This document shows, one piece after another, positions 34,200 to 39,338 of a stretch of 64,000 nt of DNA. Positions within the stretch are counted from its first letter, which is position 1. The number at the start of each line of letters is the position of its first letter. Where the stretch lies: contig CP139918.1 of the NCBI GenBank assembly GCA_034423775.1, positions 2,480,001 to 2,544,000 of the forward strand, given 5' to 3'. This DNA is from Alphaproteobacteria bacterium US3C007. GTDB taxonomy: Bacteria; Pseudomonadota; Alphaproteobacteria; Rhodobacterales; Rhodobacteraceae. Both the position numbers and the translations under genes were made by a program. The notes under the pieces were generated by a model. That model was given only the letters and a program-made list of their open reading frames with translations, made no database searches and was not told the DNA's origin.

Positions 34200-34514
34200 A
34201 TGAGAATATTCGGTTTAAAAAACTGCGATACTTGCCGAAAAGCAGTTAAGTTATTGGATGGCTATCGGTTTTTTGATGTGCGTGTCGATTTGATTCCTGA
34301 CGAAATTCTAGACGCTGCTTTGCAAGAATTTGGCGATGATTTGGTCAATAAAAAATCTACAACCTGGCGTAATTTATCGTCGGACGAGCGGGCAATGCCA
34401 CCGCGCGATTTGTTACGCCTTCACCCCGCAGTGATGAAGCGCCCCCTAATTGAGACACACGAGCAGAAACTTTACCTCAGTTGGAGCGCGAAAACGCAAG
34501 CTGCGTTGCTTTAA
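34200..34514 (+). CDS. ArsC/Spx-family arsenate-reductase-like protein
   Basis: Thioredoxin-fold protein of 104 residues with a redox pair C9 and C12 in KNCDTCRKA, resembling the YffB/ArsC-like group. Typical ArsC catalytic arginines are not obvious, so arsenate reduction is not claimed; glutathione- or thiol-dependent redox activity is the family expectation. The start at 34200 is chosen because the family begins directly with the MRIFGLKNC strand, whereas a longer frame from 33900 is antisense to cspA. Its TAA overlaps that of the convergent DoxX gene. Confidence 0.82.
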   Translation: MRIFGLKNCDTCRKAVKLLDGYRFFDVRVDLIPDEILDAALQEFGDDLVNKKSTTWRNLSSDERAMPPRDLLRLHPAVMKRPLIETHEQKLYLSWSAKTQAALL

Positions 34515-35062
34515 ACCTTGCGTGAGCTTAGCCACTGGTCAAGCGAAAGAACTCCGCCTCCGTGTCTGACGAGATAGAACAACACAAACAGCCAAAGCAG
34601 CCTTTGGTCCATAATCACAGAAGAAGAACTGCGGTCAAACCATTTGCCCAAAGTGGTGGGATCCTCAAGCACCCCGTGACCAAATAGATCAGTTGCGGTT
34701 TGTACGGCTATGAAGGCAATCATGCCCAACGCGGCATATCGGGTGAGCAGGCCGATTGTAATCATCAGTGGAATGAGGAATTCTGACAGAACACCTATTA
34801 AAACGACCAGGTCGTGAAATAGGCCAAACTGGCTAGGATCATAGCCAAAGGCTTCCATTTGTTTTGGGAAGATTTGAACATATGCGCCAGCTGATGGGTG
34901 GAACAGCCCCAGTAACCCCGCACCGAGTTTGCTGAGGCCTGATGCCCAAAAATAAACCAAAAGCACCGCCGCAAATACAAATCTTGCCAATAAGCACAGA
35001 TTGGGTACTTTCGCTGCCAGCCTGCCTGCAAAAGAGTTCATAATTTGAATAAGTTGGATCAT
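34511..35062 (-). CDS. DoxX family membrane protein of the bufferin operon
   Basis: Integral membrane protein of 183 residues with four or five helices in the DoxX/DoxD pattern (FVFAAVLLVYFWASGLSKL, then FLIPLMITIGLLTRYAALGMI). DoxX proteins frequently close the operons that contain DUF2282, DUF692 and DUF2063 genes (GigD/HvfD position), where they are thought to assist redox or export steps of the modified peptide. It is the last of four minus-strand genes, 9 nt after the DUF2063 gene. Its exact role is unknown. Confidence 0.85.
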   Translation of the reverse strand: MIQLIQIMNSFAGRLAAKVPNLCLLARFVFAAVLLVYFWASGLSKLGAGLLGLFHPSAGAYVQIFPKQMEAFGYDPSQFGLFHDLVVLIGVLSEFLIPLMITIGLLTRYAALGMIAFIAVQTATDLFGHGVLEDPTTLGKWFDRSSSSVIMDQRLLWLFVLFYLVRHGGGVLSLDQWLSSRKV

Positions 35063-35071
35063 GATGCTGCC

Positions 35072-35824
35072 CTAAAATGTGATGTCGTGAACGGAGTTTG
35101 CGTTTACAAGAAACTGCAGTCCCGCCTTGAGCGTAAATGCTGGGCCGCTGGTTTTTCCGATATTGCATGCGGTTCGAAATGTATGACCTGCAGCCAACGC
35201 GTCTAAAAACTTTATGAGTTCTTCTGGAACCGTTGTGATCTGGGGATCAAACTCAGGGCGCGTAACAAGGATCGCGCTTGCGCTGCTAAGCCGCTTTGGA
35301 TGCCGCGTTGGTGCGCCTGACTGGGCTTTGCGGTAAATGGTGCCTAGCGGCCAATATGTCGGGATGATGAAACAGGCTGCGTCAAACTGACAGCATGCCG
35401 TTAAAAGATCTGTATCTTGGTGCTTAAGAAGGTTTTCCCAATTATATAGGGCGCAGTCGCGCGCATGATAAGATAACCTTATATGTTGTTCGAGCCTGGC
35501 CAAATCAGGTAGGTATCCCAACTCAGAAAGGGCAGGTATTTTTTGTAAAAATTTCGAAAACCCCACGCCATATTTATACAAAAGAGATGAGGTTGGTTTT
35601 TCTTTACTGGCGTATAAGCGCGCCAATGAATAAAAATTCTTCGGGCCAAGAACGGCTCTTGTTTTCGGGAAGTTGCTTTCCAAAGTGGTAATTAAGCCGT
35701 GGGCTATGGTGTTTCGGTAGATGTTCAACCCGCTGGTAGCAGGGAGGTGCTTGCCGGTTTTCAAATTCGCTGGGCAAGGCTGACCGGGGTTGGAAAAAGC
35801 GATGAAAAGCTCTTTTTGTGTCAT
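35072..35824 (-). CDS. bufC: DUF2063 (HvfC/BufC-type) partner protein of the MNIO enzyme
   Basis: Protein of 250 residues. Its N-terminal half fits DUF2063: an FSNPG opening, the IYRNTIAHGLITTLESNFP motif and LGYLPDLARLEQHIRLSYHARD. In studied bufferin-type operons this protein delivers the precursor peptide to the DUF692 enzyme. The ATG at 35824 overlaps the stop of that enzyme's gene by 4 nt (ATGA); an in-frame ATG four codons earlier is also possible. It is 9 nt before the DoxX gene. The C-terminal half is divergent and looks like a degenerate winged-helix or peptide-binding region. Confidence 0.85.
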   Translation of the reverse strand: MTQKELFIAFSNPGQPCPANLKTGKHLPATSGLNIYRNTIAHGLITTLESNFPKTRAVLGPKNFYSLARLYASKEKPTSSLLYKYGVGFSKFLQKIPALSELGYLPDLARLEQHIRLSYHARDCALYNWENLLKHQDTDLLTACCQFDAACFIIPTYWPLGTIYRKAQSGAPTRHPKRLSSASAILVTRPEFDPQITTVPEELIKFLDALAAGHTFRTACNIGKTSGPAFTLKAGLQFLVNANSVHDITF

Positions 35825-36699
35825 TGAGACTGGCATCTTTGCTGTTCCAAAAGACAGGCAGCTTGCATCACTTCACTGTTTAGAACGGACCAATCAGGCA
35901 CATCTGTATCCCATTCGATCAAGCTTGCCTTTGGACCTGTACGTTTCAAAACATCTTTATAAAGCGTCCAAACTGTATCTGCTACTGGCGCAGCATGAGA
36001 ATCGATCAACAAAAGTTCGCCCTGTTCCAAAACATCTGTTGAATGTCCGCCCAAATGAATTTCACCAATGGCGGTGCAATTCAGCTCATCGATATAGGCT
36101 TCAGCTGACATGTTTAGATTGTGGCATGAGATAAATATATTATTGACGTCTAACAAAAGTCCGCATCCAGTCTGCGCCACCACCGCGTTTAAAAATGCAG
36201 GTTCCGAATAACAGCTTTCCGAAAATTGAAAGTAACTAGATGGGTTTTCAAGCAACATCTGCCGCCCCAATATAGTTTGAACATGATCCACGTGTCGGAT
36301 GACGTGTTTTAAGGTTTTCTCGGTATAAGGCAGCGGCAAAAGATCGTTTAGAAAATTGCCTGCATGCGTTGACCATGCCAAATGTTCGGAAAAACTTGCA
36401 GGATCTAGCCAGTCGCATAAACGCTTTATGCGCGCCAAATGTTCTTTATCCAGCGGCGCCTCACCTCCTATTGATAAACCAATTGCATGCACCGAGATTG
36501 GCAGCTCAGCCCGTAAATGTTGCAATTGAGAGATTGGGCGCCCGCCTTCGCCCAAATAATTTTCAGCGTGAATTTCCAGCCATCCAACGGGATGCGGGCT
36601 AGATAAAATATCGTTGAAATGTTGAGATTTAAACCCGACGCCAATGCTGGCGGGAAGTGAATTTGCGATAAGATCTGGCATCGGCGTTCCTTGGTTCAT
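35821..36699 (-). CDS. bufB: DUF692 multinuclear non-heme iron enzyme (MNIO, BufB-type)
   Basis: TIM-barrel enzyme of 292 residues in the DUF692/MNIO family. Metal-binding motifs typical of the family are visible: WLEIHAENYLG, VHAIGLSIGG, FSEHLAWS, LENPSSYF, LLLDVNNIFIS, GEIHLGGHS and LIEWDTDVPDW. Family members use two or three irons and oxygen to modify cysteine residues of ribosomal peptides; BufB-type enzymes convert Cys into thiooxazole-type groups. The likely substrate is the DUF2282 peptide encoded 33 nt upstream. It is coupled to the DUF2063 gene by a 4-nt overlap. Confidence 0.92.
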   Translation of the reverse strand: MNQGTPMPDLIANSLPASIGVGFKSQHFNDILSSPHPVGWLEIHAENYLGEGGRPISQLQHLRAELPISVHAIGLSIGGEAPLDKEHLARIKRLCDWLDPASFSEHLAWSTHAGNFLNDLLPLPYTEKTLKHVIRHVDHVQTILGRQMLLENPSSYFQFSESCYSEPAFLNAVVAQTGCGLLLDVNNIFISCHNLNMSAEAYIDELNCTAIGEIHLGGHSTDVLEQGELLLIDSHAAPVADTVWTLYKDVLKRTGPKASLIEWDTDVPDWSVLNSEVMQAACLLEQQRCQSQ

Positions 36700-36732
36700 C
36701 TTTGGATATTCCTCGAAAGATGATCGAGCCCG

Positions 36733-37035
36733 TTAAGAGGGCAGATCGCGCTCTAAGGCTGTAAGGGATCCCATACGGGCTTGATCGCCTGCGTCATTTG
36801 GCAGCTCGATTTCCAGACAGCTGCCTGCATCCACCAACGACCAGGCATTGCCTTGGTAATCCACGGTTGAAGTGCCTGCGCAGGTAGTGCCTGCGCCTGC
36901 AGCGCAATCATTTTGGCCGGCCAGAGATACGCCATAGCATTTTTCTTTGGCACCAGAGGCGGTAGCAACCATGGGTGCGCTCAAGGCAACGGCTACGGCC
37001 CCGATCAAGACTTTTGTTTTTAAATCTTCTGACAT
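36733..37035 (-). CDS. bufA: DUF2282 bufferin-type RiPP precursor (BufA1/GigA/HvfA)
   Basis: Small secreted precursor of 100 residues. A Sec signal peptide covers about 1-27 and ends in ATASG. The core has four cysteines at C33, C44, C52 and C73 in the family pattern EKCYGV...[13 protein letters not shown]...GSCLEI. In characterised relatives the cysteines are modified by the DUF692 enzyme and the exported peptide binds copper in the periplasm. GGAG lies 7 nt before the ATG. The order precursor, MNIO, partner, DoxX is the canonical bufferin operon. The C-terminus after residue 80 looks dispensable. Confidence 0.92.
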
Positions 37036-37155
37036 ACTGAAACTCCTTTTTATCTATTAACGCCCTCAATATAGGCAGCGTTTAAATAAAAAGGCACATC
37101 ACGTCTGATCACATTATTGTGGTAAGACCGCGCCCCTTTCGGAACAGAGCGCCGG

Positions 37156-37181
37156 CTTGGCTGAAACAGTTTTCAGCCAAG
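37156..37181. repeat. 11-bp perfect inverted repeat between thrS and the bufferin operon
   Basis: CTTGGCTGAAA (37156-37166) and its exact complement (37171-37181) are separated by CAGT. It lies about 40 nt after the thrS stop and about 120 nt upstream of the bufferin precursor. No T-run follows on the minus strand, so a Rho-independent stop is weakly supported. It could help separate thrS transcription from the bufferin promoter. Confidence 0.5.
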
Positions 37182-37217
37182 GTCTGTGTAATTTTTACGC
37201 GTTGTGAAATGAAATCG

Positions 37218-39164
37218 TTATCTTAAATCAGGTGCTGCAGACTCTGCTTTCAACGATTGTGCAATCTCATCTAGCGGCGCAACGCTTGTTTGCGTTTCGC
37301 CAAGACGGCGAATTGAGACGGTTTGGTTTTCCACTTCTCGTTTGCCGCAGGCCAAAATAACAGGCACTTTTGCCAATGAATGTTCGCGCACTTTATAATT
37401 GATTTTTTCATTGCGCAGGTCGAGCTCGGCCCGAATTCCCAAGCGAGACAGCAAATCAACCACCTCGCGGCAATATTCATCTGCATCCGAGACGATTGCC
37501 GCCACCACAACTTGCCGCGGGGCCAACCAAAATGGCAGCTTTCCAGCAAAGTTTTCGATCAAAATACCGATAAAGCGTTCAAAAGAGCCCAAGCACGCGC
37601 GGTGCAGCATCACGGGGCGATGTTTATCCCCATCTTCGCCAATATAATTGGCATCAAGCCGTTCGGGTAAAACGAAATCCACCTGCAAAGTCCCGCATTG
37701 CCAATCACGCCCGATGGCATCGGTTAGCACGAATTCTAATTTTGGGCCGTAAAATGCGCCTTCGCCTGGGTTAAGTTCAAACTCACAACCGGCCGCTTCC
37801 GTGGCCGATTTTAAAGCGGCCTCGGCGCGATCCCATACCGCATCACTGCCCGATCGTTGCTCGGGCCGATCCGAGAATTTAATGGCGAATTTCTCAAAAC
37901 CCAAATCTTCATATACATTTGAAAGAAAATTGATAAATTTCTTTGTTTCATATTCGATCTGATCTTCGCGGCAGAAAATATGGGCATCATCTTGGGTAAA
38001 GCCGCGCACGCGCATGATGCCATGCAACGCGCCAGACGGCTCATAGCGGTTGCAGCTGCCAAATTCAGCCATCCGCAATGGCAAATCGCGGTAAGACTTT
38101 AAGCCCTGATTATATACTTGTACGTGGCAGGGGCAGTTCATCGGTTTCAACGCATTGACAGCTTTTTCGCGCGCATGGTCTTCATCGACCTCAACAATAA
38201 ACATATGTTCTTGGTATTTTTCCCAATGGCCAGAGGCTTCCCATAATTTGCGATCCACCACTTGGGGAGTATTGACCTCGACATAGCCGTCCCGTGTTTG
38301 TTGACGGCGCATATAATCTTGGATCGTGGTGTATATTTTCCAGCCATTTGGATGCCAAAAAATTTGCCCGGGGGCCTCTTCTTGCATGTGAAACAGAGCC
38401 ATTTCACGGCCTAATTTCCGATGGTCGCGCTTTGCGGCTTCCTCAAGCATATGCAGGTGGGCTTTTAGCTGCTCTTTATTTAAAAACGCGACGCCGTAAA
38501 TACGCTGCAACATGGCGCGATTGCTATCGCCGCGCCAATAAGCACCGGCCACCGACATCAGCTTAAACGCGTCGGCGGGAACTTGTCCTGTATGTTGTAA
38601 ATGTGGTCCACGGCACAGATCCTGCCAATCGCCATGCCAATACATGCGCAGAGGTTCCGCGCCGGGTATCGCCTCAATCAGTTCAACCTTATAGGGTTCA
38701 TTTGACTGGGTATAATGCTGCACGGCTTCGTCACGCGACCAGATTTCTGTGCGAACTGCCTCGCGTTTATTGATGATGGCTTTCATAGTTTTTTCAATCA
38801 AACCAAGATCTTCTGGGGTAAATGGCTCGGTGCGGTCAAAATCGTAATACCAACCGTTTTCAATCACTGGGCCGATTGTCACCTTTACGTCGGGCCAAAT
38901 CTCTTGCACGGCGCGGGCCATGATATGCGCCAGATCATGGCGCACCAACTCCAGCGCAGGTGCCACGTCTTTCATCGTGTTGATAGCGATTGCGGCGTCG
39001 TTTTCGATGGGCCATTGTAGATCCCAATGGGCTTCGTCTAGCGTTGCGCTAATAGCTTTTTTGCCCAGCGATGTCGCAATATCATTGGCCACTTCGGCTG
39101 CGGTTATCCCGGCCGCATAGCTGCGCTTGCTGTTATCTGGAAGGGTGAGCGTAATTTGGGACAT
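37218..39164 (-). CDS. thrS: Threonyl-tRNA synthetase
   Basis: Class II aminoacyl-tRNA synthetase of 648 residues, standard length, charging tRNA-Thr. Domains in order are TGS (1-60, [18 protein letters not shown]), the editing domain with its metal site ([11 protein letters not shown], then [13 protein letters not shown]), the class II catalytic core with motif 2 ([19 protein letters not shown]) and the zinc-binding NCPCH, and the anticodon domain. The start at 39164 has AGGAGG 6 nt upstream; a longer frame to 39197 lacks this. It is monocistronic on the minus strand, opposite the hydrolase pair. Confidence 0.97.
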
Positions 39165-39338
39165 CAGATGCCTCCTCGTCATTTTGGCGCCGACCATGCG
39201 CCCGGTTGCGGGTTTAACCTCTTTTGGCGCGTCTTGCGTTCATCGTCAAGCAAGCTTTTGCTAATTTTAAAAGCGCTGGCTTGACCAAGCAGGGGATGCC
39301 CTGTCACAACGAAAGCCAACCTTAAACGATAAGGATTT

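What the first reader, a model, noticed from the sequence alone, without database searches (positions are those of the whole stretch)
34511..37035. Complete bufferin-type RiPP operon (DUF2282, DUF692, DUF2063, DoxX)
Four adjacent minus-strand genes with 33-nt, 4-nt overlap and 9-nt spacing encode a secreted four-cysteine precursor (C33, C44, C52, C73), an MNIO iron enzyme, its DUF2063 partner and a DoxX protein. This matches the Gig/Hvf/bufferin operon layout, in which cysteines are modified and the peptide buffers copper in the periplasm. The precursor core is short and all four Cys are in family positions, so a modified peptide is likely made. Whether copper is the inducer here is unknown, since no known metal-response site was seen.
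Basis: partly seen in the sequence, partly recalled or inferred. Interest (0 to 1): 0.85.

Follow-up and report, generated by a model that had tools for sequence, protein, structure and literature searches.

The report
Bufferin copper-peptide operon in marine bacterium
This is a complete copy of a known operon thought to make a small copper-binding peptide, found in an ocean bacterium; its lineage has lost the control element its relatives share, and sister strains carry damaged copies.

Summary
Confirmed: four minus-strand genes at 34511-37035 encode a DUF2282 precursor (Cys 33/44/52/73), an MNIO enzyme over NCBI's bufferin-maturase cut-off, a DUF2063 partner whose model resembles TglI and NGO1945, and a DoxX protein. 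It is a Buf1 bufferin operon, a new member of a known kind; DUF2282 occurs in 140 of 198 sampled family genomes. Genome length points to strain US3C007, a CHAB-I-5 roseobacter.

Correction: in Buf1 only the central Cys (here C44, C52) are modified; C33 and C73 should form a disulphide.

Two unexpected by-products. (1) In 87 of 127 family genomes the operon carries a 29-bp palindrome, almost mutually exclusive with SigF box and NrsF. All 27 exact matches in 120 genomes lie just upstream of bufA. The window's genus has neither element. The regulator is unidentified. (2) The operon seems to be wearing out in this genus: strain SB2 has lesions in three of four genes, one removing C52, and a congener MAG has a stop in bufC, while 11 flanking genes are clean in both. 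The window's copy and one further congener's are intact.

The parts
36733..37035 (-). bufA: Buf1/DUF2282 precursor, 100 aa. Signal-peptide-like residues 1-26 (VATA/SG site read by eye); disulphide pair C33/C73 and modifiable C44/C52 expected from the family
   Evidence: PF10048 82 bits; four Cys present in 130 of 130 precursors aligned (C33 was used as the anchor for collecting them, so only C44, C52 and C73 are tested); roles of the Cys from PMC12452194
35821..36699 (-). bufB: MNIO bufferin maturase, 292 aa (a second possible start is ATG 36681)
   Evidence: NF050167 365.8 bits, over the equivalog cut-off 310; PF05114 333.7 bits; matches 3BWW, MbnB and TglHI chains in the PDB; N186/D233/H235/D264 invariant in 81 of 81
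35072..35836 (-). bufC: DUF2063 partner with RRE-type fold, 250 aa from ATG 35824 (254 aa from ATG 35836)
   Evidence: PF09836 56.8 bits; AlphaFold2 model, mean pLDDT 93.1; Foldseek PDB matches at E below 0.001 are two TglHI chains and NGO1945/3DEE
34511..35062 (-). doxX: DoxX/HvfX-like membrane protein, 183 aa
   Evidence: PF07681 31.2 bits, cut-off 23.6; NCBIfam HvfX 30 bits, below its cut-off 80
37036..37217 (-). thrS-bufA intergenic region with a promoter block conserved in the genus; possible -10 TATATT at 37068-37073
   Evidence: alignment of window, SB2 and the G198 and G199 congeners; the -10 is read by eye only
37105..37122 (-). CCACAATAATGTGATCAG: best but weak match to the proximal half of the palindrome seen in relatives
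   Evidence: 0.32 matches this good expected on both strands of the region by chance
37218..39197 (-). thrS, conserved upstream neighbour (not part of the operon's function)
   Evidence: Pfam domains; upstream of buf in 92 of 100 loci
34200..34514 (+). ArsC-family gene, convergent neighbour whose stop overlaps that of doxX
   Evidence: PF03960 38.9 bits; downstream in 83 of 100 loci

Best explanation
It is an intact Buf1 bufferin operon. The 100-aa precursor (BufA) is made with a Sec-type signal peptide that also serves as leader. In the cytoplasm BufB, a multi-iron oxidase, with BufC, which helps bind the substrate and reach the active iron state, turns C44 and C52 into 5-thiooxazoles. The peptide is exported to the periplasm, C33 and C73 close a disulphide, and the thiooxazoles hold copper, lowering free copper. 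DoxX has an unknown accessory role. Shown here: the genes, their families, BufC's fold, conservation of key residues and the fixed chromosomal site. Inferred from family: modification, export, copper binding and role. Unknown: what turns it on in this genus. In the genus as a whole the operon looks under relaxed constraint.
For: BufB passes the bufferin-specific NCBIfam cut-off and stays below those for HvfB, ApyH, MbnB and ChrH. C44, C52 and C73 are kept in 130 of 130 precursors, besides the anchor C33. Proposed catalytic and metal-site residues are invariant in 81 BufB. BufC's best PDB fold matches are two TglHI chains (TM 0.58-0.65) and NGO1945/3DEE (TM 0.56/0.67), then a chain of the MbnABC complex at a weak E of 0.14; that the TglHI and MbnABC chains are the partner subunits I infer from chain lengths and names. 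Gene order equals the bufABC order reported as strictly conserved. One DUF2282 and one MNIO match in the genome. dN/dS against G198 and G199 is 0.13-0.32 for the four genes. Leader role of the signal peptide and the partner's role in the iron state are from PMC13419390.
Against: No modification, export or copper binding was measured. SB2, the same species, has a 15-nt deletion in bufA that removes C52, a 1-nt deletion in bufC and a stop at codon 39 of doxX; the G198 MAG has a stop at codon 66 of bufC; 11 flanking genes show none of this in either. The four buf genes are the least conserved of 15 genes compared with G198 and with G199, and their dN/dS is above that of thrS, 0.06. BufC and DoxX score below the NCBIfam HvfC and HvfX cut-offs. 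No copper-responsive site was found. A related MNIO operon in Microbulbifer was not expressed under copper (PMC12538549 passages).
Confidence: 0.8

Rival explanations
1. The operon is decaying in this genus: intact in the window, but no longer needed, perhaps unexpressed.
For: Lesions in three of four buf genes of SB2 and in bufC of the G198 MAG, none in 11 flanking genes of either (SB2 lesion places). A search of the 4 genus genomes held found bufC intact in 2 and interrupted in 2. In 78 named loci of other genera the reading frames of bufB, bufC and doxX are all full length (three were flagged only because the alignment ran past the stop). The family's promoter element is absent here.
Against: SB2 is a draft and G198 a MAG, so errors are possible; the 15-nt deletion lies between 11-nt direct repeats, which an assembler might collapse. 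The window's and G199's genes are intact. dN/dS is 0.13-0.32 against G198 and G199. The genus has its own conserved promoter block.
Confidence: 0.25
2. The same modified peptide is made, but its main job in this lineage is another metal or stress and not copper.
For: In Caulobacter two DUF2282 operons depend on SigF under dichromate, and CC3255 also rises with cadmium. MerC-Buf1 fusions point to mercury in some bacteria. No copper site was found upstream here.
Against: Characterised thiooxazole peptides bind copper.
Confidence: 0.18
3. It is a copper-acquiring chalkophore (methanobactin-like) and not a copper buffer.
For: BufB is related to MbnB (64 bits).
Against: The precursor is DUF2282 and not MbnA; MbnB scores far below its cut-off; none of the four genes is an importer.
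Confidence: 0.05
4. An Hvf/oxazolin-type operon, as the reader's phrase Gig/Hvf/bufferin allows.
For: The HvfB model aligns over residues 19-279 (217 bits); products are now thought chemically alike.
Against: Score below the HvfB cut-off of 360; BufA matches PF10048 and has no EGKCG repeat.
Confidence: 0.03

Closest known systems
Buf1 operon CC3254-CC3257 of Caulobacter (that this is the operon called bufferin 1 / gigABCD is recalled, not from a call)
   Same: Same four gene families in the same order: DUF2282, DUF692/MNIO, DUF2063, DoxX.
   Different: Caulobacter's operon has a SigF promoter (GTAACC-N16-CGAA) and follows sigF-nrsF in gene numbering. The window's genome has no NrsF match and no such box upstream, and the operon sits between thrS and arsC.
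Buf1 gene clusters surveyed in PMC12452194
   Same: Four conserved Cys, bufABC order, DoxX as part of the core.
   Different: Nothing found in the window's proteins; it is one more member.
Oxazolin (HvfABC), fontiphorin and gonophorin (captophorins)
   Same: MNIO plus DUF2063 partner making 5-thiooxazoles on Cys.
   Different: Those precursors carry EGKCG motifs; this one is DUF2282 with four Cys.
Methanobactin MbnBC and TglHI
   Same: Enzyme related in sequence, partner in fold (TglHI clearly, MbnABC weakly).
   Different: Other precursors and products; MbnB score far below cut-off.

Membership tests
Bufferin (Buf1) operon | DUF2282 precursor with four conserved Cys | tested here: met
   PF10048 82 bits; Cys 33/44/52/73
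Bufferin (Buf1) operon | MNIO enzyme of the bufferin maturase type | tested here: met
   NF050167 365.8 bits against a cut-off of 310
Bufferin (Buf1) operon | MNIO metal-site and proposed catalytic residues | tested here: met
   N186, D233, H235 and D264 invariant in 81 of 81; positions transferred by alignment. Only these four positions were checked against published ones
[quoted passage not shown]
   PF09836 56.8 bits; model matches TglHI chains and 3DEE over 223-283 alignment columns
Bufferin (Buf1) operon | bufA-bufB-bufC order, often with DoxX | tested here: met
Bufferin (Buf1) operon | N-terminal Sec signal peptide | tested here: inconclusive
   Basic start, hydrophobic stretch and VATA/SG site read by eye; no signal-peptide program was available
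Bufferin (Buf1) operon | Thiooxazoles on the two central Cys; copper binding | not testable with these tools
   needs mass spectrometry and metal titration
SigF-NrsF regulon (Caulobacter type) | NrsF gene in the genome | tested here: not met
   0 matches to PF06532 in the own genome, Caulobacter control positive
SigF-NrsF regulon (Caulobacter type) | GTAACC-N16-CGAA-like promoter upstream of bufA | tested here: not met
   none in the window; present without the palindrome in 17 relatives, all 17 with NrsF
Hvf/oxazolin | HvfB family score over cut-off | tested here: not met
   217.3 of 360 bits
Methanobactin | MbnB score over cut-off | tested here: not met
   64.2 of 325 bits

The most novel reading that the evidence does not exclude
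In the Rhodobacteraceae the bufferin operon left the SigF-NrsF stress circuit and came under an unidentified, near single-target regulator that binds a 29-bp palindrome, TNAC-N6-GTG-N3-CAC-N6-GTNA, just upstream of the promoter. The pelagic CHAB-I-5 lineage of this window then lost that control, and the operon is now being lost strain by strain, one step being deletion of a copper-ligand cysteine: bufferin decay caught in the act in an ocean lineage.
Probability: 0.45. Interest if true: 0.6.

Novelty: new member of a known kind. Interest (0 to 1): 0.38.

Why it matters
The operon shows that bufferins reach an abundant pelagic roseobacter lineage, at the same chromosomal site as in its relatives. 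The by-products matter more. A palindromic element near-exclusive to one operon per genome, and almost mutually exclusive with SigF/NrsF, suggests that the best-studied induction route for Buf1 operons does not apply to most of the marine roseobacters sampled here, and it gives an exact DNA bait for finding the regulator and its metal. If the lesions in sister strains are real, the genus is a natural experiment on when a bufferin can be dispensed with.

Tried and rejected
RpoE/ChrR (singlet oxygen) control: the window reads TGATC-N18-TATTTA at -76 and I suspected the ECF11 sigma factor (motif recalled; the review read in passages, did not give it). Of 30 relatives only one other had a TGATC-N17..19-TA match, at another place, so I dropped it.

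A second target of the palindrome: the 2-mismatch search (its match list was cut) is near chance level. Twelve sites picked from it were fetched; no downstream gene recurred, though three sites score above 20. A single-dimer pattern gave 25 matches in 19 of 100 genomes, two of them at buf operons; I saw no recurrent regulator (ORFs read by eye). Neighbour comparison found thrS, arsC and two other conserved neighbours but no recurrent regulator; neighbours were not scanned for domains. So the regulator is not identified.

Bufferin as core copper defence in CHAB-I-5, which I first wrote, was dropped after searches showed broken copies in two of four genus genomes. I lowered the best explanation from 0.88 to 0.8, the other-metal rival from 0.20 to 0.18 and the novel case from 0.5 to 0.45, raised the decay rival from 0.06 to 0.25, and moved interest from 0.36 to 0.38 for this.

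PDB searches by sequence gave nothing for BufA and only a weak TglHI hit for the BufC alignment; the fold comparison did better. Searching more congener proteins was not possible.

Papers: the PNAS 2024 bufferin paper is not held. Literature searches listed no title or abstract opening about this promoter element or about bufferin decay; only listed rows were seen, of open papers only.
Full report
OBSERVATION. Reading frames, 33-nt gap, 9-nt gap and Cys 33/44/52/73 are confirmed. The 4-nt overlap depends on taking ATG 35824 as the bufC start; the longest reading starts 12 nt earlier. Pfam hits are all over their cut-offs: DUF2282 82 bits, MbnB_TglH_ChrH 333.7, DUF2063 56.8, DoxX 31.2.

IDENTITY OF THE GENOME. 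The window lies at 2480001-2544000 of a single-contig genome of 3,622,411 bases. That is the length printed for strain US3C007 of the Roseobacter CHAB-I-5 lineage in Table 1 of PMC12075776 (passages read). A contig of strain SB2 of the same lineage encodes BufB with 99.66% identity, 291 of 292. The genome has one DUF2282 match and one MNIO match.

WHAT IT IS. BufB passes NCBI's bufferin-maturase model (365.8 bits, cut-off 310) and stays below the cut-offs for HvfB (217 of 360), ApyH, MbnB and ChrH. By alignment through 3BWW, N186, D233 and H235 correspond to HvfB N175, D242 and H244, whose Ala variants were inactive (PMC13419390, passages), and D264 to the proposed base FonB D249 (PMC12668002, part 1 of 6 and passages). 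All are invariant in the 81 BufB aligned, the window plus 80 close relatives. BufC has only a weak PDB match by sequence, but its model (44-sequence alignment, pLDDT 93.1) has three PDB matches at E below 0.001: two TglHI chains and NGO1945/3DEE; a chain of the MbnABC complex follows at E 0.14. 3DEE is named a type 1 MNIO partner in PMC12668002; that the other chains are partner subunits I infer from length and name.

HOW IT MOST LIKELY WORKS. PMC12452194 (parts 1-3 of 8 read) states that Buf1 precursors carry four conserved Cys, that the central two are the PTM targets, that the first and last form a disulphide, and that thiooxazoles sequester copper in the periplasm. So C44 and C52 should each lose 4 Da (value from HvfA) and C33 should pair with C73. 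Modification, export and copper binding are inferred from family, not shown here.

CONSERVATION IN THE FAMILY. C44, C52 and C73 are present in 130 of 130 precursors aligned; C33 too, but it was the anchor for collecting them. In 80 of 100 loci the order is thrS-bufA-bufB-bufC-doxX with arsC convergent; thrS is upstream in 92 and arsC downstream in 83 (80 named and 20 unnamed loci, a few genomes in both). DUF2282 occurs in 140 of 198 family genomes. In 78 named loci of other genera bufB, bufC and doxX are open over their full length; three were flagged because the alignment ran past the stop, but their frames are full length.

DECAY IN THE GENUS. Against the window, SB2 has a 15-nt deletion in bufA that removes residues 51-55, C52 among them, a 1-nt deletion at window position 35156 that shifts the frame near the end of bufC, and a stop at codon 39 of doxX. 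The deletion lies between two 11-nt direct repeats (read by eye). The G198 MAG has a stop at codon 66 of bufC. Eleven flanking genes (two seen in part in SB2) have no stop, shift or gap in SB2, G198 or G199. The four buf genes are the least conserved of the 15 genes compared with G198 (85-91% against 92% or more) and with G199 (85-90% against 93% or more). A search of the four genus genomes held finds bufC uninterrupted in the window's and G199, split in G487 (the window's species; by its two-piece pattern the SB2 genome) and with a stop in G198. Against decay: dN/dS of the four genes is 0.13-0.32 towards G198 and G199, though thrS has 0.06; both damaged records are draft assemblies, so error is not excluded. 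Broken in 2 of 4 is a small sample; a larger protein search could not be made.

REGULATION. Caulobacter's DUF2282 operons are SigF-dependent, with NrsF as negative regulator (PMC3511200, passages). The own genome has no NrsF match and no SigF-type box upstream of bufA. I took 130 non-redundant upstream regions from 162 loci (three gave no precursor match). A matrix trained on them finds a strong element (score over 17; best of 650 shuffled regions 6.9) in 87 of 130. It reads TNACG-N4-CGTGA-NN-CACG-N4-CGTGANTGG: a 29-bp palindrome, TNAC-N6-GTG-N3-CAC-N6-GTNA, or two tandem dimer sites 15 bp apart. By eye it lies about 20 bp upstream of a -10-like CTAGGGT; no transcript start is known. Matrix, threshold and count come from the same set, so this count is not blind.

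TESTS OF THE ELEMENT. (a) The exact pattern occurs in 27 of 120 family genomes, once each, and all 27 sites lie 155-190 nt upstream of the DUF2282 stretch; the pattern read backwards gives 0 in 120. (b) Of 289 class genomes, at least three of them in the family, one has it: a family member already counted. (c) Of 80 named loci, 79 had enough upstream DNA and 73 score over 17; of the 69 whose upstream was not in the training set, 65 do. No other hit occurs in 1,996,180 positions, both strands, of these loci. Many are Ruegeria, so they are not independent. (d) Of 127 family genomes with a readable upstream region (125 of the 140 plus two congeners), 87 carry the palindrome, 2 of them with an NrsF match (one weak and with stops); 17 carry only the SigF box and all 17 have NrsF; 23 have neither by these criteria, one with NrsF. 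Fisher p is 1e-17 for 17/17 against 2/87, ignoring phylogeny. Two palindrome genomes without NrsF also match the loose SigF pattern. Some of the 23 have the proximal half or a 16-nt spacing. With two mismatches the pattern is near chance, and three sites away from buf score over 20, so 'near-exclusive' is the most that can be said.

THE WINDOW'S OWN PROMOTER. The window, G198 and G199 have neither element (scores -15.6, -11, -11; shuffled mean -16.9), and SB2 scores -15.6. The region is conserved among them. The best proximal-half match in the window, CCACAATAATGTGATCAG at -87, is expected 0.32 times by chance on both strands; the form in G198 and G199 0.009 times on one strand. A worn single site is possible, not shown.

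COPPER CONTEXT. Of G000, G198 and G199, only G000 has a P-type ATPase over the TIGR01511 cut-off; G198 has no match and G199 two below the cut-off. That copA gene is followed by a CueR gene (161.8 bits, cut-off 147.4) and by IS66 TnpA and TnpB genes, so it may be acquired. PMC12075776 also calls copA spotty and limited to one subcluster. I see no simple exchange: G199 has intact buf genes and no such copA, G198 a broken bufC and no such copA.

VERDICT. A real, complete and ordinary bufferin operon in the window. The promoter element of its relatives, absent here, and the broken copies in sister strains are what a specialist would follow.

Noticed in passing
upstream of bufA in relatives, e.g. 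L065, L077, L132, L139 (not in the window): A 29-bp palindrome TNAC-N6-GTG-N3-CAC-N6-GTNA in 87 of 127 family genomes, almost mutually exclusive with the SigF box and NrsF. Regulator unknown.
   Followed up: partly
L175 (SB2) and L063 (G198 MAG) against window 34511-37035: SB2: 15-nt deletion in bufA removing C52, 1-nt deletion in bufC, stop in doxX. G198: stop in bufC. None in 11 flanking genes. Error or decay not settled.
   Followed up: partly
e.g. L081, L082: By coordinates NrsF lies within 5 kb of the DUF2282 gene in 16 of the 29 family genomes with an NrsF match.
   Followed up: no
L256 (own genome, about 875 kb on contig C1): copA and cueR next to IS66 TnpA and TnpB genes; no copA over cut-off in G198 and G199.
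   Followed up: partly
window 34511-34514: doxX and the convergent ArsC-family gene overlap at their stop codons.
   Followed up: no
G007 (L071, L029) and G100 (L122): Two DUF2282 matches a few hundred bases apart on one strand.
   Followed up: no
L163, L164, L167: Three sites scoring over 20 to the palindrome matrix away from a buf operon; two of these genomes (G112, G091) are not among the DUF2282 genomes.
   Followed up: partly
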